From contig JANWVC010000008.1 of NCBI GenBank assembly GCA_025057755.1, forward strand, positions 224,724 through 288,723: a DNA stretch of 64,000 bases, written 5' to 3'. Each line of letters begins with the position of its first letter. The first letter of the stretch is position 1. Under the pieces are notes generated by a model. The model was given only the letters and a program-made list of their open reading frames with translations, was not told the origin of the DNA and ran no database searches. A program made the position numbers and the translations under genes. The DNA is from Limisphaera sp. (GTDB taxonomy: Bacteria; Verrucomicrobiota; Verrucomicrobiia; Limisphaerales; Limisphaeraceae). Shown here in pieces: positions 51,360 through 64,000 of this stretch.

Positions 51360-51800
51360 GTGTTTTTCCCGTGGCATTACAGCCCAGGCTGTACGTGGCG
51401 TGAAAAGCAGCGAGCGGTGTGCTCAACCGAGGTGCCTGAAAAATCGGAGCGGATGCCGACGAGGCGAGAGGAAGCCGGTGGAACCGAAAAGGAGGCGCAT
51501 GTGGTTCGTAGGCTGCCGAGGCTTAAAAATTGCTTAAAGGTCTCCTTGATAAGAGAGGGTGCGTTGTATAGTGTTGTTGGGGGTCGCAAAGTTTTCAGGG
51601 AAAATGTGCGATCCGGAACCTATTTTAAGCCAGTCATGCCCGGTGTTGGAGCAGGCCCACGAAGACTGGTGGTACTCAGTGTTTTGCTCGGGGTTTCTAT
51701 TGTGTTAGTTCTAGCGGTTGTTCGGTGGAGCCGTGCCAACAAGATGCCACCGACACAAACGCAACACAGAACAAAGAAAGCACAGAAAAATGAGCAGTAA
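51360..51800 (+). pseudogene. Probable remnant of a C-terminally anchored secreted protein (module 1)
   Basis: Only the C-terminal TM + basic tail (RRLVVLSVLLGVSIVLVLAVVRWSRANKMPPTQTQHRTKKAQKNEQ) looks protein-like. It overlaps the downstream Cys-rich ORF, as in modules 3 and 4. Confidence 0.4.
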
Positions 51801-52152
51801 AGCCATGAGAATGCAAGTACGCGGTCTATTCGTTGTAACGACGCTGCTGTTGACCGGGTCAGCCTTGGCCGTGGTCTGTTACACGACCGTGACTGACACC
51901 ACCTGCAAGAAACTCGGCTCGATCGAGTACTTTTCACGATGCGCGTGGCGTCAGTTTTTGTCGGCTGCGGGCGGGTTCAGCAGATGCGACGAGGCACCGA
52001 CCGGACTGCTGAATTGTAAAGATGTGGGCAATGCCAAAGAGTGCTGGTATCAGTACCTCTATCATGAATGTAACGGGCAAGAAGTCGTATTGTGGGGCAC
52101 AAATTATATTAAAGATTCTGTGGCCACCGGTGGTGTCTGTCCGCCGCCGTAA
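51790..52152 (+). CDS. Cys-rich exported peptide, module 1 (8 Cys after signal peptide)
   Basis: MSSKAMRMQVRGLFVVTTLLLTGSALA signal peptide, then Cys-rich VVCYTTVTDTTCKKLG...NCKDVGNAKECWYQYLYHECNG. Overlaps the upstream ORF by 11 nt. Confidence 0.7.
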   Translation: MSSKAMRMQVRGLFVVTTLLLTGSALAVVCYTTVTDTTCKKLGSIEYFSRCAWRQFLSAAGGFSRCDEAPTGLLNCKDVGNAKECWYQYLYHECNGQEVVLWGTNYIKDSVATGGVCPPP

Positions 52153-52734
52153 CAAGCTGAAGGACAGGCCGGTATCTGGGTAGTAGGGTGTGCGCTTACC
52201 TCACGTGAGAAAAGGGCGGCGATGCTGTGCGCGGAACATTGGAGTGGGCATGCAGCGCCGCGCTAGGTTAAGTAGCCTACGGGACTGACCCCAGTGGTGG
52301 GTTGCAAGGAAAAACAGGAGAGTTGTGAAGGCAGCCGCGTGCCCTGTTCGAGTTAAAGGGGCACCGATGGCGTGAGTGCATTGGGGCTGTGCGCCTTAAC
52401 GGGGTGCATCTCTTGGCGCTCCCGAGTCCACCGTGGGGTGGGAACGGCGGCTTGGTAGGGCGCGTGCCCGATGGTGCGGCCCGATGATTGGTACCGGGTC
52501 CACTCAATAGGAATGGGCCTGCACGGGCGGGATTTAGCCCGGCGATTGTTACTGTTCCCGGTCCCGACTGCCCGATGCGGAGGCGTTGTGTGCGGGCGCG
52601 CCTCGGCTTGGGAAAGTGAAGTTGCGCCTGGAGGGGTGGTAGGGATTTCGGGTGCTGGAGCCGGAAGCATTGGGGCTTGGCCCTGGGTTCAGTCCGGGGC
52701 TCACCCGGAGACTGCGAAGCCCCAGCTTTGCGAC

Positions 52735-52800
52735 GAGCTGGTAATCAGGAAGTTGCGAGGTATTTCGATAAGGTATTGACTTTTTGCGGCTAGAATTGGG
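52735..52800 (+). repeat. Repeat R1 upstream of module 2
   Basis: GAGCTGGTAATCAGG...TTGCG...TTGACTTTTT.GCGG shared with 55656-55722. Confidence 0.65.
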
Positions 52801-52831
52801 TTAAACTTAGGAAACTTCAAAATGCCATGAT

Positions 52832-53293
52832 ATGGACCGCTTTGATCATGTAGTGGGCAAGCGTGTCGGGTCGCTTGTAGCGACGCGCTCGAATATACCC
52901 TCGAAGCAGTTCAGGAATACTCTTGCCTTGCTGAAAAGGGTCCTAGTATCAAGCCTCGCTTTCTTTGCTTGTTCTTCGGCTTTAACCGGGACAACGATTT
53001 ATGCGCAAGTGTATTTTGCTGAGGGGCGAATCGAGCTGGTAACGAAGCGCGCCGCTGACGATCTTGGAAAGACCAATACGTATGCATTTTACGTGGAGGT
53101 TGTGGGAGGCAAGTACAAGATCAGATTACGCACTGGTGTCATGCTTTTGAGTACCGGTTTGGCGAAGGCGCGGAGCACAATCGGCGCCGCGCTGTGTGTC
53201 CGCAAGGACGCTAATGTCGAGCGGCTGGTGAATGCGGCTGCGGCAAGTGCGCATCTTTGCGGCTCTTTTTGTCGGCAATTGCCTCATGAATAA
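52832..53293 (+). pseudogene. Chimeric remnant: N-terminus of an anchored secreted protein fused to a MauE-like fragment
   Basis: GRIELVTKRAADDLGKTNTYAFYVEVVGGKYKIRLRT (compare GELEAIYHDRAGKPVGRQTTKFTVSVGSGRWLLKSEY at 58.1 kb), followed by LLSTGLAKARSTIGAAL (compare LLITGLAKAWSAIGPAR at 57.4 kb). Confidence 0.55.
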
Positions 53294-54374
53294 AATGCGC
53301 AGGCTAGGCAGAGTGTGGCTGGGCGGGTACGGGGGACTCTTGGTTTTGTGTGCCTTGATATCGCCATTGGCCCCGCAGTTGGCCGCGGCGACGCTGCGTT
53401 ATAACGGGGTAGTGGTACTAGGAAAGCCCGACGGCCAAGGTGGGATTGTAGAGACGGTCGGGGGGATAATAATCCGCCAAGATGCGGAAAAAGGGCTTAC
53501 TTGTATCGAGCAAGATTGTACGGCCGTTTACTCCTCGAAAGTGGAGCTGTGGTGCAATGGGATTGACATTTTTCTAATTGAGAGATTTGCGAACCCGAAG
53601 ATAAAACCTCTTGCCACGGTGAGGAGGGTTGGCACCCGCACGCTTGGCGAGGCCATAGGGACTATTGTCGAAATCCCGTATCTGGTGAGTTGCACAAAGT
53701 ACCGGGAGATAACGAACTGTGCTGCATGCGAAATACCCCTCAGCCTGCTTCACAAGGATCCAGACTTCGGGTGTGACGCATTTACGGTGAAACCGGGTGC
53801 CAGGGAAGGCGAGGTGATCTTCTGGCTAAACGGAACGGGCAGGACCAAGCGGGACGGGTACGAATACCAGCTCCCTCCTCCGTACCACAACGGCTATGTT
53901 GCAGCCAGACTACTTATTGATGAAAGTACTGGCCAGGTTGCGGGCACATTGCCCAAACGTGTGGATTTTTCATTCTATCGCTCAAAACCGGGCGGGGTGG
54001 ACGCGAACGACTTGGCGTTGCACCACCGCGTATCAGTAGTCATAACAAACGTTGAGGTGACTTCCGAAACGTTGGTTGGTGCGCCGGTCGTGCGTAATGA
54101 CGAAACATATGAGACGGTTGACTACAGGTTTGAATCTTTGCATGGCGACCCGTTTTTCTACCGCGTGGGGAAGGGTGGCGATTTCCCCAGATTTATTGAA
54201 TCTCAGTCAAAAGAGTTTGGGAAAATTGAAGACGCTTTGAAAGCACGCCTTGGGATGGTTCCAGCCCATCAGCCGGGCTTCGGGCGTCACATTGTATTGG
54301 CCGTGCTGGTTGGCTTTTCCGCCTTTTTTGCCCTGATCCTGGCAAGAAAGGCGCGAAAGACCGGTGCCCCGTAG
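53286..54374 (+). CDS. Secreted protein with C-terminal TM anchor, module 2
   Basis: N-terminal hydrophobic segment, ELWCNGIDIFLIERF motif, C-terminal HIVLAVLVGFSAFFALILARKARKTGAP. Confidence 0.75.
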   Translation: MNKMRRLGRVWLGGYGGLLVLCALISPLAPQLAAATLRYNGVVVLGKPDGQGGIVETVGGIIIRQDAEKGLTCIEQDCTAVYSSKVELWCNGIDIFLIERFANPKIKPLATVRRVGTRTLGEAIGTIVEIPYLVSCTKYREITNCAACEIPLSLLHKDPDFGCDAFTVKPGAREGEVIFWLNGTGRTKRDGYEYQLPPPYHNGYVAARLLIDESTGQVAGTLPKRVDFSFYRSKPGGVDANDLALHHRVSVVITNVEVTSETLVGAPVVRNDETYETVDYRFESLHGDPFFYRVGKGGDFPRFIESQSKEFGKIEDALKARLGMVPAHQPGFGRHIVLAVLVGFSAFFALILARKARKTGAP

Positions 54375-54425
54375 GGGTCGCACTGGTAGGCGTGCCAAGT
54401 TAAATTAGGATCACAGACGTAAACT

Positions 54426-54827
54426 ATGAAACCAAAAAATCCGTAAATAGTTGCATGCTTGGGAGCTGGACTGTTGGCGCTCACGCTTGTGGTAGGTAGT
54501 GTAAACGGTGGGTACAGCGAGGGTTTCAGAACCGTTTGTCCGAAGATTGTATGGAACTATATTGGGGGCGAGTGTTGGGTCAGTAACGGCGTTTGCAACG
54601 GCTCCAAAACGTTCGAAAAGGTGAAAACATATGTTTGCACAGGAAGGGGCGATCTTAATTGTCCTCCTGACGAAAACCTTGGCAGCAAACGGGTAGTTCA
54701 GTGCGAGTGGGTCCCAAGATACGAAAAGGATTTTAAACTCAACGTTGACCTACAAAAGTGTGAAGCCGCCATCGGGTACACATGCCCAGATGGTTCTGTA
54801 TGTGAGGCGCGTACTCCGACCGAGTAA
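54426..54827 (+). pseudogene. Cys-rich exported peptide, module 2, with in-frame TAA in the signal peptide
   Basis: ATG 54426 reads MKPKNP-TAA-IVACLGAGLLALTLVVGSVNGGYSEGFRTVCPKIVWNYIGGECWVSNGVCNG... all in one frame. The ORF track begins at TTG 54459 because of the stop at 54444-54446. Confidence 0.6.
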
Positions 54828-55223
54828 AGTTTGCAGGCGGCGAGCGGAAAGACCGGCTTGGGACACGGAGGGAAGGCTCCCACAGTTGCGCGAGCGACGT
54901 CGGTGTATAGCATTGGCATGCCGCGTACCGCAGCGTGAATGGTAATAAGGCTTGAACATTCGATTGACGCAGCAAAACCCAGCTTCATCCCGGGAAAATG
55001 CGCATTCCTGTGTCATCGTATTGTGCAAGCCTGACCGAGAGTGTATGGCATGGGTACTAACCCGGATATTTCATACTCGATTGTGAAGCGCATCTGGCCC
55101 TGATGCTGACTGCTGCTGTTGCTGCCCGCCGTGGTCATTTCGCCATTCTGTGTTGTTGATTGGGCTGACTGCATGTGGGCACAGGGTGTGGTAGTGGAAA
55201 TGATTGGACAAAACGGAAAAAAG

Positions 55224-55258
55224 TTTCAGCGAGCCGCTGAAATCCCGCGTGCGCGGGA
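55224..55258. other. Two back-to-back perfect hairpins
   Basis: TTTCAGCG-AGC-CGCTGAAA immediately followed by TCCCGCG-TG-CGCGGGA. Confidence 0.75.
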
Positions 55259-55331
55259 CCAGCGGCGTGTGCTACCATCAACTATGAAATATCCGGGCTA
55301 AAGACGGAGCATTTGCAGAAGAAAAACGGGG

Positions 55332-55480
55332 CTGGCCAAGGCGTGGAGCGCAATTGGCCCCGCCTGTGCGTTGGATGTGGCGCACCCGATAGTTGGTGTC
55401 CCGCCAGGCAACTGATTTTGGGCCTGCTAGGGGTAGAGTTGAGCGTTGCTTTTTCCTGTTTCCCGTTGACGACAGAAAAA
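55332..55480 (+). pseudogene. Truncated, frame-disrupted copy of the MauE-like gene at 57347-57835
   Basis: CTGGCCAAGGCGTGGAGCGCAATTGGCCC and TTGGATGTGGCG are identical to 57.43 kb. Similarity continues through GGTGTCCCG...GGCAACTGAT.TTGGG, with no intact frame. Confidence 0.85.
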
Positions 55481-55655
55481 ACCATAACTGCCAAACGCCA
55501 AAACTGCGGGATTGGGGCTGCATTGCGCCCACGTGAATGAGACTTCGTGAGTATGCGTTGCAGGTGGTGTCGACTATTACAGCGGAAAGCGTGCGATTTT
55601 GCCCCAAGATTCGACCTGCAGCATGCCAAATAATGAGTCGAATGTGCTATGTAAG

Positions 55656-55722
55656 GAGCTGGTAATCAGGGATTTGCGGAACATCTCAAAAAGGTTGTTG
55701 ACTTTTTTTGCGGTCTTAAAAT
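55656..55722 (+). repeat. Repeat R2 upstream of module 3
   Basis: GAGCTGGTAATCAGGGATTTGCGGAACATCTCAAAAAGGTTGTTGACTTTTTTTGCGG. Its first 15 nt are identical to R1. Confidence 0.65.
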
Positions 55723-55885
55723 GGCGCAGAAAATTGGAAGAGGGAAAATTTGGAGCGACCTTACTGGTTTCAAAGGGTTGGCTATGGTGCAAAAGCCGGG
55801 GTACGTTCGCAAAAAGCAACTGCGGTGGGTGAGCACAGAAACGACTCGGGTAGAAACTGAAACCTGTAGATCGGCAATTAATTAA

Positions 55886-56908
55886 TTGGCCATGCACAAG
55901 GCCACCCATGACGAAAGTAATGAGTTTGAAAAATTGGCGGGATACCGAGATGTTGATCGGCACCGTCCGATGCGCCGTCAAGCGGGTCTTAGGGCAAGCC
56001 ACTTGCGCAGGAGGGCATTGACAGTTTTGTGGCTTACGACACTAAATGTTCTCGCCCAGCCTTTGGCTGAACGTTGGTGGGAACACAGTTCTCCAGAAAC
56101 CGTCCTGGCAAAAGCCAAATCAATAACACGTGATTTGGCTTACTTCCACGGAAGCAAGGCGCGGCTATTAAATGACCCAGACTCTTCGATCGAGCTTTTC
56201 GCGCGCAAGACACCTACCGGGCGTGTTGAAACGGAATCTGTTCTTTATACTCGGGGCAAAGTGCGGACCGTCACGTATGATCTAGAAAGCGGAAAGTTCA
56301 GCCTTGTAAACGGCATTCTGATAAAACAGGAATTCACCAATCATGCGCAGCGATTGGAAGCGTCGCTTGCGGAGTCGATAGATAGGCCTTACGAATATCG
56401 AGTATTAAAAGCGGAAGTCATTGGCACTAACGATTGTGTTGTTGTGGCCCGTATGGCATCGCCGAAGCTGCTCCAATTATTAAGGGCAGCGCTTTACCCG
56501 CCCCATATTCAAATGCCGGATTTCCTTGGAGACCCTACCAACTACATAAGGGCTGAAACCCACTATTATATCCGGAAAAGCGACGGTGTGATTATTGGCG
56601 AGATCAAAAAGAACAGTGCAGGCGAGATTTTAGAGGACATGCTTTTTGACTTTGTCGAGGTTAACGTTCCGATACCAGAAAAAGTGTTCAACTTGCCAAA
56701 AGCAACACTGGTAACAGCGACGAACGAGGTACAGTTTCTCCAGATAATTGCTACCGGGTACAAAGCTGAACACGTTGTAAAGCCGACGCAAATCAAGATA
56801 ATCCGCGGTGTGATTCTTGGAGCCGTGCTGATTTCTGGGTGCGGATTGTTGTTCCTGCTTTATCTCAAACGAAGAAAACGAGTAAGTGAGACTAAAGGTA
56901 GAGAATGA
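55886..56908 (+). CDS. LolA/RseB-like secreted protein with C-terminal TM anchor, module 3
   Basis: AETHYYIRKSDGVIIGEIKKNSAGEILEDMLFDFVEVNVPIPEKVFNLP resembles the LolA/MucB fold. C-terminal GVILGAVLISGCGLLFLLYLKRRKRVSETKGRE. Confidence 0.75.
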   Translation: MAMHKATHDESNEFEKLAGYRDVDRHRPMRRQAGLRASHLRRRALTVLWLTTLNVLAQPLAERWWEHSSPETVLAKAKSITRDLAYFHGSKARLLNDPDSSIELFARKTPTGRVETESVLYTRGKVRTVTYDLESGKFSLVNGILIKQEFTNHAQRLEASLAESIDRPYEYRVLKAEVIGTNDCVVVARMASPKLLQLLRAALYPPHIQMPDFLGDPTNYIRAETHYYIRKSDGVIIGEIKKNSAGEILEDMLFDFVEVNVPIPEKVFNLPKATLVTATNEVQFLQIIATGYKAEHVVKPTQIKIIRGVILGAVLISGCGLLFLLYLKRRKRVSETKGRE

Positions 56909-57177
56909 AGACGAGGAAATCCCTAAACAGGAAGATAGCAATGGCAGTGGCTAGCTTTGGAGTAGTCGCCTCCATTGTTTACGCGCTCAACGCAACCCCT
57001 GGCATTAAAGACCGGTGTTACCGCTGCGATGACGAACATCCGGTCACTATTGGTAATACAGTTTGCAAGAGTCAGGACTGTTGCTGTATAGCGGTGTGCC
57101 TGCTTCTAAACCCGGACAACCACGAGGCAGCGGGACATTGCACCGCAGACTGTATGGATTACAGGCCTAAGGGGTAA
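56905..57177 (+). CDS. Cys-rich exported peptide, module 3 (9 Cys)
   Basis: MKTRKSLNRKIAMAVASFGVVASIVYALNATPGIKDRCYRCDDEHPVTIGNTVCKSQDCCCIAVCLLLNPDNHEAAGHCTADCMDYRPKG. ATGA overlap with the upstream gene. Confidence 0.8.
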   Translation: MKTRKSLNRKIAMAVASFGVVASIVYALNATPGIKDRCYRCDDEHPVTIGNTVCKSQDCCCIAVCLLLNPDNHEAAGHCTADCMDYRPKG

Positions 57178-57346
57178 AATCGGGTCCGGCCTCGGGGCAC
57201 ATTGTTAGGTGCGCCGCCCGAGCTGTGGTGGAGTTTGGGTGCGGATCAGCAAAGGCGTATGTTACGCCCATCCGCTGAGGGGCAGAGGCCAGCTTGCGAC
57301 TCCGCAAACGTGAGAACTGTGCGTTGGAATGCCGCATATCTGAACG

Positions 57347-57835
57347 ATGACCGCAAAATTTGGTAATGGAAAACGGTTGGTTGAGTCGTTTGTCATCGGC
57401 GCGGGCTTCACTTTACTTATCACCGGTCTGGCCAAGGCGTGGAGCGCAATTGGCCCTGCGCGTGCGTTGGATGTGGCGGAACCGATATTTGGTGTCCCGT
57501 TTCGGCAACTGATGTTGGGTGTAGGGCTGCTCGAGCTGTTCGTTGCGTTCTTTTGCCTGTTTACGGACGAGCGGCAATTCAGTCTGCTGGCGGTAACGTG
57601 GCTTGCGACAAACTTTGTCGTGTACCGGCTCGGACTGCTTTGGATCGGCTGGCGCCGGCCCTGTGGGTGTCTCGGCAACCTAACTGATATCTTGCATATC
57701 TCACCTGGCGTGGCTGACTTGATCATGAAGGTGGTGTTGGTCTATTTGCTCCTTGGCGGTTACGGGCTGCTGGTATGGATGTGGTGGCAGCGGCGCGCAG
57801 AAACGAGGAGACGGGCGTCTCTGACGAGCGCGTAG
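57347..57835 (+). CDS. MauE/DoxX-like 4-TM protein with CxC motif
   Basis: GLAKAWSAIGPARALDVAEPIFGVPFRQLMLGVGLLELFVAFFCLF...LGLLWIGWRRPCGCLGNLTDIL...VYLLLGGYGLLVW. Confidence 0.8.
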   Translation: MTAKFGNGKRLVESFVIGAGFTLLITGLAKAWSAIGPARALDVAEPIFGVPFRQLMLGVGLLELFVAFFCLFTDERQFSLLAVTWLATNFVVYRLGLLWIGWRRPCGCLGNLTDILHISPGVADLIMKVVLVYLLLGGYGLLVWMWWQRRAETRRRASLTSA

Positions 57836-57851
57836 TGGCGTGAAAGTGGTA

Positions 57852-57883
57852 CTTTCTCAGTGCTGTGGTAATGGGTGAGAAAG
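57852..57883. other. Inverted repeat between modules 3 and 4
   Basis: CTTTCTCA-16 nt-TGAGAAAG. Confidence 0.55.
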
Positions 57884-57952
57884 AAGGTGGATCGGCAACT
57901 GTGTAGAAACGCAATGTTTGTGGGGTTCACTGCATAGTGGAGACATACGTTT

Positions 57953-59149
57953 GTGAATGCGATGGTAGAGAAGGCGTGTACCGTGCAAGGTGTGAGCGGC
58001 AGGGTGACGGCAGGGTATGTGCTTAGAATGGCGATCGCGCTTCACGGGTTTTTGATGCACGTTAGCGCAATTGGACAAACCTGCACCGTCACTGGGGAGC
58101 TGGAGGCGATTTACCATGATCGGGCAGGTAAACCTGTGGGCAGGCAGACCACGAAATTTACTGTGTCTGTAGGGAGTGGGCGATGGTTGCTTAAATCTGA
58201 ATACGATCCGGAGTGGTTCTGGTTGGTCGGCTGCGACGGTGTGAATACCTATTCAGTGCTTGTTGATCCCAAGGCCCGGCATTTGCCTGCGCCAGCGACC
58301 GTTTTCCCTGGGGCTTTTCCGCGTGCTGCGTTTGACACGGTGTCCGTTCCGTGGCTGGCGTACTGCTCGTTCGGTTTCCTGGAGAATCCCACTAACAGGA
58401 ATCGAATTCCTTTATTATGGTTGCAGCCTCAACTCGATCCTTTGGCGCACGTGTGTTCCACCACGGTGAAGCAATTCAGGGAGCCACCTTATTTGCCTGA
58501 AGAAGTGGAATGGAGGACAAGTGCAGATGCCATTGCTTCGGCGGCGTCCAATCCCATGTTAAGAATTGAAGGCGCTTCCCCTGAAGAGCTGGCGAGGCGT
58601 CAGATAGACTACAAGACCGCAATTGCGACCAATAAGGTGTTGGGGAAATATCGCGTCCTAGCCTCGACAAATGTGAGTGGACAAACCCTTCCCCTGACTT
58701 TTGAACTGGAGGGTTACGGATATTTGTCGCCGGATCAACGAGAACGCATTTTGTCGGCGGTGGGAATGTCTCTCCCAGAAACGTTCCTTAACGTAAGATA
58801 CCTGGGGCGCGCCTTAGCGATTTCGCACGTACCGGAACCGCCGACACTTCCCGATCCGAGTATGCCTTTGTCTGTGAGCGATTATCGGCTTGCATGCAGG
58901 GAGGACGGAATTGAATACGTGTCATATCAAGCGCGGCGATGGAAAGAAAAAGTGGATGAAGACCTTGTACGTCTTTCGGAACAAAAAAGGCGCAGCCCTT
59001 CGAAGCAATCTAGTCAGTATATAGGCAGCTCGGGCATGCAAAGCATCTCCCGGGGTGTGATCTTTATGGTTCTTCTCATGCCATTACTTGTCTGGGCGGC
59101 GAGAAGGATTCGGAAAAAAGCCAGAAAACACAACAGTCATGGATCATGA
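57953..59149 (+). CDS. Secreted protein with C-terminal TM anchor, module 4
   Basis: Signal peptide, WLVGCDGVNTYSVLVD (compare module 2 LWCNGIDIFLIE), C-terminal GVIFMVLLMPLLVWAARRIRKKARKHNSHGS. Stop overlaps ATG 59146. Confidence 0.8.
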   Translation: MNAMVEKACTVQGVSGRVTAGYVLRMAIALHGFLMHVSAIGQTCTVTGELEAIYHDRAGKPVGRQTTKFTVSVGSGRWLLKSEYDPEWFWLVGCDGVNTYSVLVDPKARHLPAPATVFPGAFPRAAFDTVSVPWLAYCSFGFLENPTNRNRIPLLWLQPQLDPLAHVCSTTVKQFREPPYLPEEVEWRTSADAIASAASNPMLRIEGASPEELARRQIDYKTAIATNKVLGKYRVLASTNVSGQTLPLTFELEGYGYLSPDQRERILSAVGMSLPETFLNVRYLGRALAISHVPEPPTLPDPSMPLSVSDYRLACREDGIEYVSYQARRWKEKVDEDLVRLSEQKRRSPSKQSSQYIGSSGMQSISRGVIFMVLLMPLLVWAARRIRKKARKHNSHGS

Positions 59150-59467
59150 AAAGACCACTATTCGTCATTCTTATGTGCAGCGTGATCCTGTCATTAGGGT
59201 TTTGCGATCTATGCGCAATGCATAGCAAACCCCAGTGTCGATACCTCGGGGTGTAAGAGTGGGTGTACCGAGGGAACGTGCCAAAACATCTCCTATTCGC
59301 CTCCTGGTGGTCAATGTGGTGAGGATCCCACGCCTTGCTCTAACCCGTTTACCTCAGTGAAGACCATTCAAACGGGTTCCTGTTTCCCCACAGCCGGTGG
59401 CGGCTGTCGGTGCGGAACGGCGGGACTAAGCACGTCTCATGTTACAACGTGCGGATGCAGGCCATAG
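59146..59467 (+). pseudogene. Cys-rich exported peptide, module 4 (11 Cys), split by a frameshift at a T4 run
   Basis: Frame A: MKRPLFVILMCSVILSLGF. After T4 at 59200-59203, frame B: AIYAQCIANPSVDTSGCKSGCTEGTCQNISYSPPGGQCGEDPTPCSNPFTSVKTIQTGSCFPTAGGGCRCGTAGLSTSHVTTCGCRP-TAG. Confidence 0.7.
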
Positions 59468-59880
59468 GTCCCGGCTTTTGGCAGTTTAGGCATACCTTAA
59501 AACTGTGGCGCGGGCGTGGTGGCGGAACAGATAGGGCAACAGCGATCTTTCTCATGAAGTTCTCACCTGTGTACTGGGCAGTTATGGATTTGTTCATTTG
59601 AAGATGGGTAGCTACTGCGCCGCAGCGGTGCAGTTCGCTAAAACCGCGGCCGGTAGGAATTGCTAAGAAACTGGTAAACGCGCACCCGCGGGGTGGAATT
59701 GGGGGACCGAGGTTTAGGGGAATGGCCAAGGTAATTTCCGTTACCGGCGAATTCGACGCAGGGCGAATCCCATGCCGTGTGACCCGAATACCGTGCGGCT
59801 GAGAGAGTTGATTCCGGTCGGGCAATCTGACAAACTAGGGTGTGTTGGCGGCATAAGCTGAGGCATGCGGTTTCACGCGG

Positions 59881-60729
59881 ATGCGCGCGCACACGGAAGC
59901 GCGGCCGGTGTTTAAAGGCGCTAATGCGATGGGGCGAGGTCTGAAATGTACCGAGGCAGGTGTGACGCGGCGGGACGTGGTGTTTTTGGTATTCTCCGTG
60001 TGCGTGCTAGCCGCCCTGGGGTGGAGAGCGCTTGGGGGTGGCGAGTTCCAGCGCACCTTGGCTTGCAAGTACAAGCTTGGGCGGTTGGGAGCGGCTTTCG
60101 CCCAGTACGCTGACGAGAATGCACGTGCGATCCCACCTGCTGCGCTTGAAACTGGCCGCGGCTACACGACATGGGACACGGTGCTCGGGCGGTATCTTGC
60201 AAATACCCGTGCTGGGGATGGCGCGGCAACGGGCTCGGAACTCATCCAGCGAACGGCAGCGGCGTTTCATTGTCCGTCGGATACCGAGCCGCGTGGCGGT
60301 GAGAAACCCCGAAGCTACTCGATGCCAATGTATGACGTAAAGAGGGAGGGTTGGCCGCCCGTGGTGTCGAGTCAGGGTGGGCTGGGGCTGTACTTGGACG
60401 CCGAACGGTTAAAGCTTGCGTGCGAGGCCGCACCGGTCGGGCTGCAGAGCTCGATCCCTTCGATCAGGATTTCGATGGTTCCCGACCCGGCTTGGACTGC
60501 GCTGCTTGTCGAGCGGGTTGCGATCCGTAACGTGCTTGGGACCCATGAGTTCGTGGTCACAGCTGGGCCGCGCGAACAATGGGCGGCTAAAACCATCGAG
60601 CTGGATAAATTCCATCGCGGTCGGCTCAACTATTTGATGTTGGACGGGCATGTCGAGCGGTTGAGCATACGCGAAAGTGGCGGTCATGCGGGCAACGGCG
60701 GGGTGTGGACAATCCGGCCTTGGGACTGA
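59881..60729 (+). CDS. Pseudopilin-like (H-X-DG/DUF1559-related) protein with non-canonical N-terminus (start may be 59929)
   Basis: KLGRLGAAFAQYADENARAIPPAALE, FHCPSDTEPRGG, RLNYLMLDGHVERL. N-terminus TRRDVVFLVFSVCVLAALGW lacks the G-F-T-L-x-E motif. Confidence 0.7.
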   Translation: MRAHTEARPVFKGANAMGRGLKCTEAGVTRRDVVFLVFSVCVLAALGWRALGGGEFQRTLACKYKLGRLGAAFAQYADENARAIPPAALETGRGYTTWDTVLGRYLANTRAGDGAATGSELIQRTAAAFHCPSDTEPRGGEKPRSYSMPMYDVKREGWPPVVSSQGGLGLYLDAERLKLACEAAPVGLQSSIPSIRISMVPDPAWTALLVERVAIRNVLGTHEFVVTAGPREQWAAKTIELDKFHRGRLNYLMLDGHVERLSIRESGGHAGNGGVWTIRPWD

Positions 60730-60732
60730 ACA

Positions 60733-62508
60733 ATGAACCTCGGGCGTGGCAGGTTGAGCAAGTGGCTCGTGCACGGTCGTAAGCGGATCGGGCCAGCGAC
60801 TGCAGTGTGTGTGACCGCAATGTTTGCGACGCAGCTTTGTGCGGATTGGGTGGGTGTGCCGCGCAAGGCCGAAAGGCTTGCTGCCGAGTTCGCGTCAATC
60901 GGCGCGATTCAAGTTGACCCTGCCGTGGCCATAAGTGGCGCGGCTGACTTGCTCGGCGTGTTCCGGAGCACCGAAAACGGCGTGGGAATTTTCATTGTTG
61001 ATTTGAAGGACAAGTCCGAGCGCGTTCTGGCCCAGGCTTTGGATTCGGAGTATTACAGGAAGGCACGGGCTGCACGCATTTGGGGCTGGTCAACCGACGA
61101 TTCTCTTTTTGCGTACACTTGGGGCGACGAGCAGGAGAATTACACGCTGGTTATCTGCAATCGGACCGGTGAACAGCAGTTAGGGCGTGTGCCGCTACCT
61201 GACGGGCTCCGCGCTATGAAATGGCTCGGGCCGGACGCGTGCGCGTACATTGATTGGGCGACGAACCTTGTACATCTCAAGCGCAGTGGCACCGATTGGG
61301 AGCGCGCGGCAGTGTGGCGATTGCAGCCGGTCCCCGGGCGACCCGCATTAGAAGCTTTGGACGCCGACACCGTGGCAATCGGCTGGATTGGCGGAACCGA
61401 ACTTTGGCAGGTCGAGCTTGCCTCGGGCAAGACTGCGAAACTTTACACTGCGGCCCCGGGCAATTCTATTGATGCGGTTCGGTACGAGCCCGCTAGGCGC
61501 GCGTTTTTGGTCTCCGAAAGCGCGCGGCGCGCGACCAGATCCTCGTTGGTAAGGGTCTCGCGGACAGGTGCAGATTGGGTGCGCCACGAGCTCGGCCAGT
61601 GGCCGACCATACGCGCGGTAGAATGGTTACGCAACGGCGCGGGGTATGCGCTGCACATTCGCCAGGGCGAGAATAACTACTTGTTGATCAAGCCCGGGCC
61701 GTTCGAATCGGAGTCGATACATTTCAAGGGTGGGGGCGTGGTGGGTGTGGTTCCCGCTTCGGCAGCAGGTGCGGTTTACGCGATTGCCTCAGTGTCGAAC
61801 GAGCCGCCGGCCATTTGGGCATGCGACGGTGAGACCAAAACGCGGGTCTATTCACTAGAGGGAGGCGCAGGGAAAACCTTGAAATATCAACCGGTGCTGG
61901 TTGGGTGGGCGCCGTTCGACGGGCATAACGCGCGATTCGAGCTTGTGCCGCCAGCCGACTTTTCGCGAAGCAAAAAGTACCCGCTTGTCATTGGCCTGGC
62001 AAGTTACACGTGGTCGCCGGTCCCGCACGCAGTGTGCGCGCAAACGCTCGCGCGCGCTGGGGCGTATGTCGCGCTGAGCGGGTTCACATTCCGCGATGAC
62101 CTGCGCAGGGTCTCACTCGAACACGTCAACAACATCAACGCGATCTACAACATAATGGTGGCCAACCCGAATGTGGACGCCGACCGGGTGTTCTTGTTCG
62201 CGTTCAGTGGGAGCACAACCGCTGTGTGCGAGTTACTCAAGCAATATCCCGGCCGGTTCAAAGGTGTAATTTTGTTGCATCCGGCTGAGTTGCCGGAGCC
62301 GAAACCTGGTATGTGCGAGCGTGTCCTTCTGACCGCCGGGGTGGATGAAGACTGGACGAAGGAGAGAATCGCCGAATACCAAGAGGCGTTGTGCAAGGTC
62401 GGCATTCCGCTGGATGTGTATTTGCATGAGGCAGGGGGCCATATTGCGCGAGCGCAGCGCACGATGCGCGAACGGGCGGTGTTGATGGCAAAAGCGGTTT
62501 TCGACTGA
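60733..62508 (+). CDS. S9 prolyl-oligopeptidase-like protein (beta-propeller + alpha/beta hydrolase)
   Basis: KKYPLVIGLASYTWSPVPHAVCAQTLARAGAYVAL...NIMVANPNVDADRVFLFAFSGSTTAVCELL...LLTAGVDEDWTKERIAEYQEAL...HEAGGHIAR. Possible S/D/H triad. Confidence 0.75.
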   Translation: MNLGRGRLSKWLVHGRKRIGPATAVCVTAMFATQLCADWVGVPRKAERLAAEFASIGAIQVDPAVAISGAADLLGVFRSTENGVGIFIVDLKDKSERVLAQALDSEYYRKARAARIWGWSTDDSLFAYTWGDEQENYTLVICNRTGEQQLGRVPLPDGLRAMKWLGPDACAYIDWATNLVHLKRSGTDWERAAVWRLQPVPGRPALEALDADTVAIGWIGGTELWQVELASGKTAKLYTAAPGNSIDAVRYEPARRAFLVSESARRATRSSLVRVSRTGADWVRHELGQWPTIRAVEWLRNGAGYALHIRQGENNYLLIKPGPFESESIHFKGGGVVGVVPASAAGAVYAIASVSNEPPAIWACDGETKTRVYSLEGGAGKTLKYQPVLVGWAPFDGHNARFELVPPADFSRSKKYPLVIGLASYTWSPVPHAVCAQTLARAGAYVALSGFTFRDDLRRVSLEHVNNINAIYNIMVANPNVDADRVFLFAFSGSTTAVCELLKQYPGRFKGVILLHPAELPEPKPGMCERVLLTAGVDEDWTKERIAEYQEALCKVGIPLDVYLHEAGGHIARAQRTMRERAVLMAKAVFD

Positions 62509-62511
62509 ACG

Positions 62512-63873
62512 GTGAGCGCGCAAGGAACACGAGGTCGGCCAGCCGGGCCTAAAAGGCTCGGCCTGAGGGCCGTAGGCGCAGTGGCTGAATTGGCGCGTTC
62601 GACAGTTGTTCAAACCCTGTTCTGCTTGGTTGGGGGCGCGATTTTGCTCTGGCTGGGCTTGGCCACTACTGCCGAAGCGTTATCTGGCGCAACGGTCTAT
62701 AATCTGGTTGACCCGGTGTTCGGATTCCGCCTGGGATACGTTATGGGCATGTATGGTGTGCTCGAGCTTGTTGTCGGGTGCCTTGCATTGCTCCAGACGC
62801 GCACAGGATTGGGCCTGGTGGCTATGGCGTGGCTGGCAGCCAACCTGGGAATTTACAGGTTGGGCCTGGCGAGCATAGGGTGGGTTTTGCCCTATCATTG
62901 GGTCGCGCCGTTGGTGACACGGTGGGGTTTGCATGCGCAGGTTGCCGACCTGCTTTTGACAGCTTTCTTGGTATGCCTGCTGGTGGGCAGTTTGACTTTG
63001 CGGTTCGTACCCGAACGTGTTGGGCGGCCGGTGGCCTTTTACAAAATGCGCTGCCCGAGTTGTGAAGGTAAAGTTGGATTCCCAGCACATGGGGTGGGCC
63101 AGCAGGTTTCCTGCCCGCATTGTGCTGCTGCAATAACCTTAACTGCGCCGGATGCGACCGGGCCTCAGGGACCGGGTATCAACCCGCAGGCCTCCTTTAC
63201 CTTGGTCGAGCTTTTGGTCGTCATTGCAATCATAGGGATTTTGGCGAGCCTGCTTATGCCGGTGCTGACCAAGGGCAAAGACCGCGCACAGCGGATCGTG
63301 GACATCAACAATTTGAAGCAGCAGATCACAGCCACGCACCTGTATGCGGCCGATGGCGCGGGCGTGTTACCATGGCCAAATTGGGCTTTAGGAGATGCAC
63401 CGGACAGGCCCGGTTGGCTGTACAAGCTTGATCCCGCCGCCACAGGCCCGGCGAGGTTTAAGGTCGAGACGGGAGTGTTTTGGCCCATATTGCGAAATGC
63501 GAAGCTGTATTTCTGTCCGCGCGACGGGCCGCATGTGCCCAGGTTCACCGAACGGCCCCAGCGAATTTCAAGCTATGTGATGAATGGCGCGGTCATTGGG
63601 TATAACCGAACAAATTTTCCCCCTGCGCGCTTGGACGCATTCCGGCCTGATGATGTTGCATTTTGGGAAACAGACGAGAAATACCCTGACTATTTCAACG
63701 ACGGTGCGAGCTACCCGTGGGAAGGCGTAAGCGCACGGCATGATCTGGGCGCTATTCATGCAGCGTTTGGAGGGCAGGTCGGATTCATCAAGCTGGACCA
63801 ATGGTACCTCGAAGAAGCCAAACCGACCCGAAACCGGCTATGGTGTTACCCCGGCAGCGAAGACGGACGATAA
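62512..63873 (+). CDS. MauE-like 4-TM + zinc ribbon + prepilin-type (H-X-DG) fusion protein
   Basis: N-terminal VYNLVDPVFGFRLGYVMGMYGVLELVVGCLALL...[87 protein letters not shown] start, 3 nt after the S9-like stop. Confidence 0.8.
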   Translation: MSAQGTRGRPAGPKRLGLRAVGAVAELARSTVVQTLFCLVGGAILLWLGLATTAEALSGATVYNLVDPVFGFRLGYVMGMYGVLELVVGCLALLQTRTGLGLVAMAWLAANLGIYRLGLASIGWVLPYHWVAPLVTRWGLHAQVADLLLTAFLVCLLVGSLTLRFVPERVGRPVAFYKMRCPSCEGKVGFPAHGVGQQVSCPHCAAAITLTAPDATGPQGPGINPQASFTLVELLVVIAIIGILASLLMPVLTKGKDRAQRIVDINNLKQQITATHLYAADGAGVLPWPNWALGDAPDRPGWLYKLDPAATGPARFKVETGVFWPILRNAKLYFCPRDGPHVPRFTERPQRISSYVMNGAVIGYNRTNFPPARLDAFRPDDVAFWETDEKYPDYFNDGASYPWEGVSARHDLGAIHAAFGGQVGFIKLDQWYLEEAKPTRNRLWCYPGSEDGR

Positions 63874-64000
63874 CTTGAAGAAAACGCTGCTGGCGCTGCT
63901 TGATGCGCGACTTTGAAAATTTGCCCTGCTAACTACCAAGTGGACGTTCGCCCAGCTTTATGCGTAATCTCAGCGTCCGTCAGGTTTTGACCATTGGTTG

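What the first reader, a model, noticed from the sequence alone, without database searches (positions are those of the whole stretch)
51360..59467. Reiterated module: anchored secreted protein + overlapping Cys-rich exported peptide, sometimes with a MauE-like membrane protein
Seen in sequence: four times in about 8 kb, an ORF ending in a C-terminal TM helix with a basic tail is followed immediately by a small ORF with a signal peptide and 8-11 cysteines. The junction overlaps by 11 nt in module 1 and as ATGA in modules 3 and 4; module 2 has a gap of about 50 nt. MauE-like sequence, intact or fragmentary, recurs next to the modules. Established knowledge: MauE (with MauD) of the mau cluster is needed to make the methylamine dehydrogenase beta subunit, which carries six disulfides. 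Inference: the MauE-like protein, with a CxC motif, could support oxidative folding of the Cys-rich peptides, and the anchored protein could be a dedicated chaperone, sorting or immunity partner. The peptides are very diverged in sequence, which suggests diversifying selection or a toxin/effector-like role. This is my best candidate for an undescribed system.
Basis: partly seen in the sequence, partly recalled or inferred. Interest (0 to 1): 0.78.

Follow-up and report, generated by a model that had tools for sequence, protein, structure and literature searches.

The report
MauE, anchored LolA-fold, Cys-rich protein module
A set of neighbouring genes, found across many families of one order of Verrucomicrobiota, pairs a membrane-anchored protein with a lipid-carrier-like fold with a small exported protein full of cysteines and a membrane protein that probably makes disulfide bonds; it looks like an undescribed folding station for disulfide-rich surface or secreted proteins.

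Summary
The module is real and recurs, but the window holds a half-decayed array. Only A3-B3-MauE (55886-57835) is wholly intact. Module 1 has a shortened anchored protein, the module 2 Cys peptide is a pseudogene, and the module 4 Cys peptide has a 1-nt frameshift (intact in a near-identical contig).

The same pair (A: anchored protein with C-terminal TM and basic tail; B: signal peptide, median 10 Cys) occurs 44 times in 747 kb of MauE-containing DNA from the order, and 0 times in 400 kb of control DNA from it. ATGA overlaps are common. MauE is always on the same strand, mostly directly beside the pair, and in about seven cases fused to A with a consistent six-TM topology.

Two separate sequence families of A both fold, by AlphaFold2 and Foldseek, like the LolA/LolB/RseB superfamily. 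Neither A nor B has a convincing Pfam match. Family A is almost confined to this order.

Best explanation: an inner-membrane station in which MauE (periplasmic CxC) and a tethered LolA-fold chaperone oxidise, fold and hand on Cys-rich exported proteins, often beside prepilin-like and O-antigen-ligase genes. The toxin and diversifying-selection readings are not supported by the little data available. No function has been shown experimentally.

The parts
51360..51800 (+). A1: short anchored-type ORF (146 aa), C-terminal TM + basic tail; probably a truncated anchored protein
   Evidence: C-terminus 38% identical over 37 aa to A2's C-terminus; no A-profile match to the rest
51790..52152 (+). B1: exported Cys-rich protein (8 Cys), 11-nt overlap with A1
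   Evidence: same architecture as 46 other B proteins
52725..52774 (+). 50-nt repeat upstream of module 2 (copy 1)
   Evidence: 74% identical to 55646-55695; core occurs only twice in the 3.63-Mb genome
52832..53293 (+). relic ORF: N-terminal part of an A protein joined to a MauE fragment
   Evidence: A profile E 0.0035 in the N-terminal half, MauE similarity 68% over 19 aa
53286..54374 (+). A2: anchored LolA-fold-family protein (family g1); ORF opens at 53232, likely start ATG 53286
   Evidence: g1/A5 profile E about 1e-55; no Pfam hit
54426..54827 (+). B2: Cys-rich pseudogene (stop after 6 codons; further lesions in L053)
55302..55412 (+). MauE fragment
   Evidence: 78-nt repeat 90% identical to 57422-57499; MauE profile E 5e-4
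55646..55695 (+). 50-nt repeat upstream of module 3 (copy 2)
55886..56908 (+). A3: anchored protein, 340 aa, TM at about residue 309 + basic tail; outside families g1 and g2
   Evidence: dN/dS 0.31 against L052
56905..57177 (+). B3: intact exported Cys-rich protein (9 Cys), ATGA overlap with A3
57347..57835 (+). MauE-like 4-TM protein with PCGCLG motif in the TM3-TM4 loop
   Evidence: Pfam PF07291 E 3.8e-6, just over cut-off; TM segments; C108 invariant and C106 nearly so in 20 homologues
57953..59149 (+). A4: anchored LolA-fold protein (family g1), modelled
   Evidence: AF2 pLDDT 70, pTM 0.64; Foldseek top hits LolA/LolB/RseB
59146..59467 (+). B4: Cys-rich protein, split by a 1-nt frameshift near 59200; intact in L052
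59881..60729 (+). prepilin-like protein with H-X9-DG-type C-terminus, conserved neighbour (sub-threshold matches)
60733..62508 (+). alpha/beta-hydrolase-like exported protein, conserved neighbour
   Evidence: no Pfam hit itself; homologues beside other modules
62512..63873 (+). MauE-like domain + zinc ribbon + type IV prepilin domain in one ORF; in L072 followed by a Wzy_C O-antigen ligase

Best explanation
A dedicated periplasmic maturation station. B is exported and needs several disulfides. MauE, a 4-TM inner-membrane protein with a periplasmic CxC, supplies or shuffles disulfides. A, a LolA/RseB-fold domain tethered by a C-terminal TM and often carrying an N-terminal signal segment, binds the unfolded or lipid-exposed B beside MauE and passes it on towards the outer membrane or surface. 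One MauE can serve several A-B pairs. The neighbouring prepilin-like, O-antigen-ligase (Wzy_C) and hydrolase genes suggest that B ends up on the cell surface or in a glycosylated surface structure. Shown here: the recurring gene set, the linkage, the fusions and their topology, the predicted fold, purifying selection. Inferred: disulfide chemistry by MauE, A binding B, and the destination of B.
For: A-B pairs 44 in 747 kb of MauE loci against 0 in 400 kb control. All 44 have MauE on the same strand; about 37 have it immediately beside or fused (with one misclassified fusion). True MauE-A fusions have 4 MauE TMs + 1 TM (the former signal segment) + periplasmic domain + C-terminal TM with basic tail. 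CxC conserved. A families g1 and g2, modelled separately, both hit LolA/LolB/RseB. B: median 10 Cys, even number in 32 of 46 (p = 0.006), last Cys within 4 residues of the end in 39 of 46; lipobox in only 3 of 47. MauE is held to act in disulfide formation of methylamine dehydrogenase beta (PMC7794033, citing van der Palen 1997). Wzy_C neighbour.
Against: No experiment. A homologues also occur without MauE, and some without B or without the C-terminal TM, so MauE is not obligatory for A. A and B similarities correlate only weakly (Mantel r 0.09, p 0.017), so cognate pairing is not shown. AF2 models are moderate (pLDDT 70-72) and TM-scores low (0.3-0.55). A3 itself was not modelled and matches neither A family clearly. 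The pair scan started from MauE loci, so genome-wide co-occurrence is the fairer test: 31 genomes with both against 16.8 expected, p 2e-7, not corrected for phylogeny.
Confidence: 0.45

Rival explanations
1. B is a secreted toxin or bacteriocin-like effector, and A (with MauE) is its dedicated chaperone or immunity protein; the array evolves by birth and death.
For: Very diverged B proteins (median pairwise similarity near background), several modules per genome, decay and different lesions in near-identical contigs, patchy distribution.
Against: No match in PADLOC or Pfam. dN/dS of B3 and B4 is 0.2-0.3, not above 1. One MauE serving several A-B pairs and Wzy_C/prepilin neighbours fit surface maturation better. 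No secretion system or killing gene found beside them.
Confidence: 0.18
2. B is a structural disulfide-crosslinked envelope or appendage protein, like the Cys-rich envelope proteins of Chlamydiae in the same superphylum, and A is its anchored assembly factor. This is a narrower form of the best explanation.
For: Cys framework with variable loops, even Cys numbers, prepilin-like and Wzy_C neighbours.
Against: No sequence similarity of B to any Pfam family; nothing shows polymer formation; small size and variability argue against a shared lattice.
Confidence: 0.17
3. A is an RseB/MucB-like sensor of envelope lipids or misfolded protein, B its ligand, and nearby LuxR-type regulators the output.
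For: RseB and MucB among Foldseek hits; LuxR-family genes near 5 of 34 pair loci.
Against: A's tail beyond the C-terminal TM is only about 12 residues, with no signalling domain; no anti-sigma partner seen; most loci lack the regulator.
Confidence: 0.08
4. The region is a decaying repeat family without current function in this genome.
For: One of four modules intact, MauE scraps, relic ORF.
Against: Purifying selection on A3, A4 (p 0.0008) and B3, B4 (p 0.003); intact modules in at least 26 other genomes.
Confidence: 0.12

Closest known systems
mau cluster: MauE/MauD maturation of methylamine dehydrogenase beta subunit
   Same: MauE-family membrane protein with a Cys-rich exported substrate that needs many disulfides
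   Different: No methylamine dehydrogenase light chain found in 146 genomes of the order (the control also gave nothing, so not conclusive); partner is a LolA-fold protein, not a thioredoxin-like MauD; B has no similarity to any Pfam family
LolA / LolB / RseB (MucB) superfamily
   Same: Predicted fold of A
   Different: No sequence-family match, C-terminal membrane anchor, fused or adjacent to MauE, and the putative client B is mostly not a lipoprotein
Candidate RiPP clusters with mauE in Streptomyces (decRiPPter, PMC7794033)
   Same: mauE beside a small precursor gene with no other mau genes
   Different: B is a 70-145-residue mature exported protein with a cleavable signal peptide; no modification enzyme or transporter recognised; different phylum
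Chlamydial Cys-rich envelope proteins with DsbA/DsbB (PMC6752827)
   Same: Disulfide-rich exported proteins in the PVC superphylum
   Different: No sequence similarity detected by Pfam; MauE instead of DsbB; anchored LolA-fold partner

Membership tests
MauE (Pfam PF07291) | profile score above the curated cut-off | tested here: met
   27.7 bits against 27; only just
MauE (Pfam PF07291) | lies in a mau cluster with methylamine dehydrogenase | tested here: inconclusive
   PF02975 0 of 146, but control genomes also silent
MauE (Pfam PF07291) | needed for disulfides of its substrate | not testable with these tools
   needs knockouts and mass spectrometry
LolA family proper | sequence-family match | tested here: not met
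   no Pfam or NCBIfam hit for A
LolA/RseB superfamily (fold) | LolA-type half-barrel with helices | tested here: met
   two independent AF2 models, Foldseek probability 1.00 for the LolA/LolB hits at the top of both lists; models of moderate confidence
LolA family proper | lipoprotein client | tested here: not met
   lipobox at the first Cys in 3 of 47 B proteins; client relation itself not tested
Type IV pilin / prepilin (for B) | N-terminal methylation motif | tested here: not met
   no N_methyl match in 46 B proteins
PEP-CTERM / exosortase sorting (for A) | PEP-CTERM-type model match and an exosortase | tested here: not met
   no NCBIfam match for A2-A4; the multi-TM neighbours tested were Wzy_C O-antigen ligases; exosortase genes not searched genome-wide
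Anti-phage or toxin-immunity systems | match to a known model | tested here: not met
   PADLOC no hit for 8 proteins

The most novel reading that the evidence does not exclude
An undescribed, order-wide envelope machine (MauE + tethered LolA-fold protein, sometimes one polypeptide) that oxidises and exports a hypervariable family of disulfide-rich surface or contact-active proteins.
Probability: 0.3. Interest if true: 0.8.

Novelty: new variant of a known kind. Interest (0 to 1): 0.62.

Why it matters
MauE has no settled biochemical role outside methylamine dehydrogenase, and LolA-fold proteins are known as lipoprotein carriers or stress sensors. A MauE-LolA-fold fusion beside Cys-rich exported proteins would link the two, give a testable substrate for MauE-type proteins, and expose a large uncharacterised set of disulfide-rich exported proteins in a poorly studied bacterial order.

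Tried and rejected
Exosortase for the multi-TM neighbours: the ones tested with Pfam as O-antigen ligases are Wzy_C. PEP-CTERM: no NCBIfam match for A. Mau cluster: no light chain found, control silent. Lipoprotein B: rejected, 3 of 47 lipoboxes. Cognate A-B pairing by Mantel test: weak. PDB sequence searches for A: nothing useful. First A1 alignment too diverse for a collection scan, replaced by A2. Plasmid search for A3: none. Literature searches for a described MauE / Cys-rich / LolA module in Verrucomicrobiota found none in the open-access library; most subscription papers are not in it.
Full report
What is in the window. The window is the end of a 289-kb contig (G000:C6:224724-288723) of a 3.63-Mb genome; the same-genus genome G001 corresponds to a contig filed as Limisphaera sp. 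SKW233, so the genus is Limisphaera or close to it. Between 51360 and 59467 there are four A-B arrangements, with A the anchored protein and B the Cys-rich exported protein. Only A3-B3-MauE is wholly intact. A1 is short (146 aa) and matches no A profile. B2 meets a stop after six codons and has other lesions in contig L053. B4 is broken by one nucleotide near 59200 but is a single 106-aa ORF with an ATGA overlap in L052. MauE scraps lie at 55302-55412 and inside a relic ORF at 52832-53293, which joins an A N-terminus to a MauE fragment. A 50-nt repeat stands before modules 2 and 3 and its core is found nowhere else in the genome. The array therefore looks like one that grew by duplication and is partly decaying.

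Recurrence. MauE homologues were found in 50 of 146 genomes of the order. I fetched DNA around most of them and scanned it with fixed rules: A = frame of at least 150 aa ending in a TM with a basic tail; B = 60-230 aa, signal-type segment, at least 6 later Cys, start within 60 nt of A's stop. Fifty pairs came out, of which 44 remained after removing those that looked spurious by eye and one duplicate; 400 kb of other DNA from the order, some of it from the window's own contig, gave none. Fifteen of the 50 have the ATGA overlap. With the window, the pairs lie in 27 genomes of 16 families (my tally). MauE is on the same strand in all 44, immediately upstream, immediately downstream or fused in 38 by the script; one of these, L054_9819, is not a true fusion because its frame lacks the MauE TMs. 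Seven fusions remain. Six of them show four MauE TMs, a fifth TM where A's signal segment would be, the A domain, and a final TM with basic tail; L122 has one extra predicted TM. That topology puts both the CxC loop of MauE and the A domain on the periplasmic side. A's tails average 4.6 K/R and 0.5 D/E over 12 residues.

A is a LolA-fold family. A proteins fall into two sequence families, g1 (with A2 and A4) and g2, plus some outliers including A3. Members tested have no Pfam or NCBIfam match. I modelled A4 with 14 relatives and, separately, a g2 member with 9 relatives; mean pLDDT 70 and 72, pTM 0.64 and 0.65. Against the PDB the top hits of both are LolA, LolB and LolA-superfamily proteins, with RseB and MucB further down (best E 5.8e-6 and 4.1e-7). 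TM-scores are low, so I claim the superfamily fold, not function. Family g1 occurs in 49 of 146 genomes of the order and in one of 288 other genomes drawn from the phylum.

B. Forty-six B proteins have a median mature length of about 105 residues and a median of 10 Cys; 32 have an even number (p = 0.006), and in 39 the last Cys is within four residues of the end. Only 3 of 47 have a lipobox. Only two chance-level Pfam matches appear in all 46. Loops are highly variable.

Selection. Against L052, a near-identical contig, dN/dS is 0.31 and 0.37 for A3 and A4 and 0.22 and 0.31 for B3 and B4; pooled Fisher tests give p = 0.0008 and 0.003. B2 shows only non-synonymous changes, as a pseudogene would. 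MauE itself gave 1.2 from only nine changes, which says nothing either way.

A caution on that pair. L052/L053 belong to G058 (MAG SKYB101), which is placed in another family. It matches the module region at 95-99% but other parts of the window only at 65-75%. Either the locus moved recently between families or these contigs are mis-binned; the contig title gives a coverage of 2.4. The frameshifts and the stop in its MauE may be assembly errors. Either way it is a near relative of the window's locus and serves for the selection test.

Neighbours. Beside pair loci I find Wzy_C O-antigen ligases, sometimes fused to a transglutaminase-like domain, prepilin-like proteins, alpha/beta hydrolases and LuxR-family regulators, all absent from the control DNA at the same threshold. 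In the near-identical contig the Wzy_C gene follows the MauE-zinc-ribbon-prepilin ORF. PglL-type Wzy_C proteins often lie next to their glycoprotein targets (PMC3643930, abstract), so a surface role for the products is plausible, not shown.

Limits. A homologues also occur without MauE and often without a detectable B, so the triad is one arrangement of a broader family. Genome-level co-occurrence of MauE and g1 (31 against 16.8 expected, p 2e-7) is not corrected for relatedness. Cognate pairing of A with B is not shown.

Conclusion. I think the most likely explanation is a membrane-tethered oxidative folding and hand-over station for disulfide-rich exported proteins, confidence 0.45.

Noticed in passing
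window 62512-63873: One ORF joins a MauE-like domain, a zinc ribbon and a type IV prepilin N-terminal domain.
   Followed up: partly
window 52725-52774 and 55646-55695: 50-nt repeat upstream of modules 2 and 3; its core is found nowhere else in the genome. Duplication scar or regulatory site, not resolved.
   Followed up: partly
L052/L053 (G058) against window 52919-64000: 95-99% DNA identity with a genome of another family whose other matches are 65-75% identical: recent transfer or mis-binning.
   Followed up: partly
L169 2324-4165 (-): Prepilin N-methylation motif and S9 prolyl oligopeptidase in one ORF, next to an A-B pair.
   Followed up: no
L067 9432-11882: Wzy_C O-antigen ligase fused to a transglutaminase-like domain.
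   Followed up: no
L078 and L083: Module-bearing contigs filed under Falkowbacteria and Anaerolineae MAGs: transfer or mis-binning.
   Followed up: no
L077 8876-9964: Frame ends LSLIHISEPT at the contig end, which looks like sequencing-adapter read-through.
   Followed up: no
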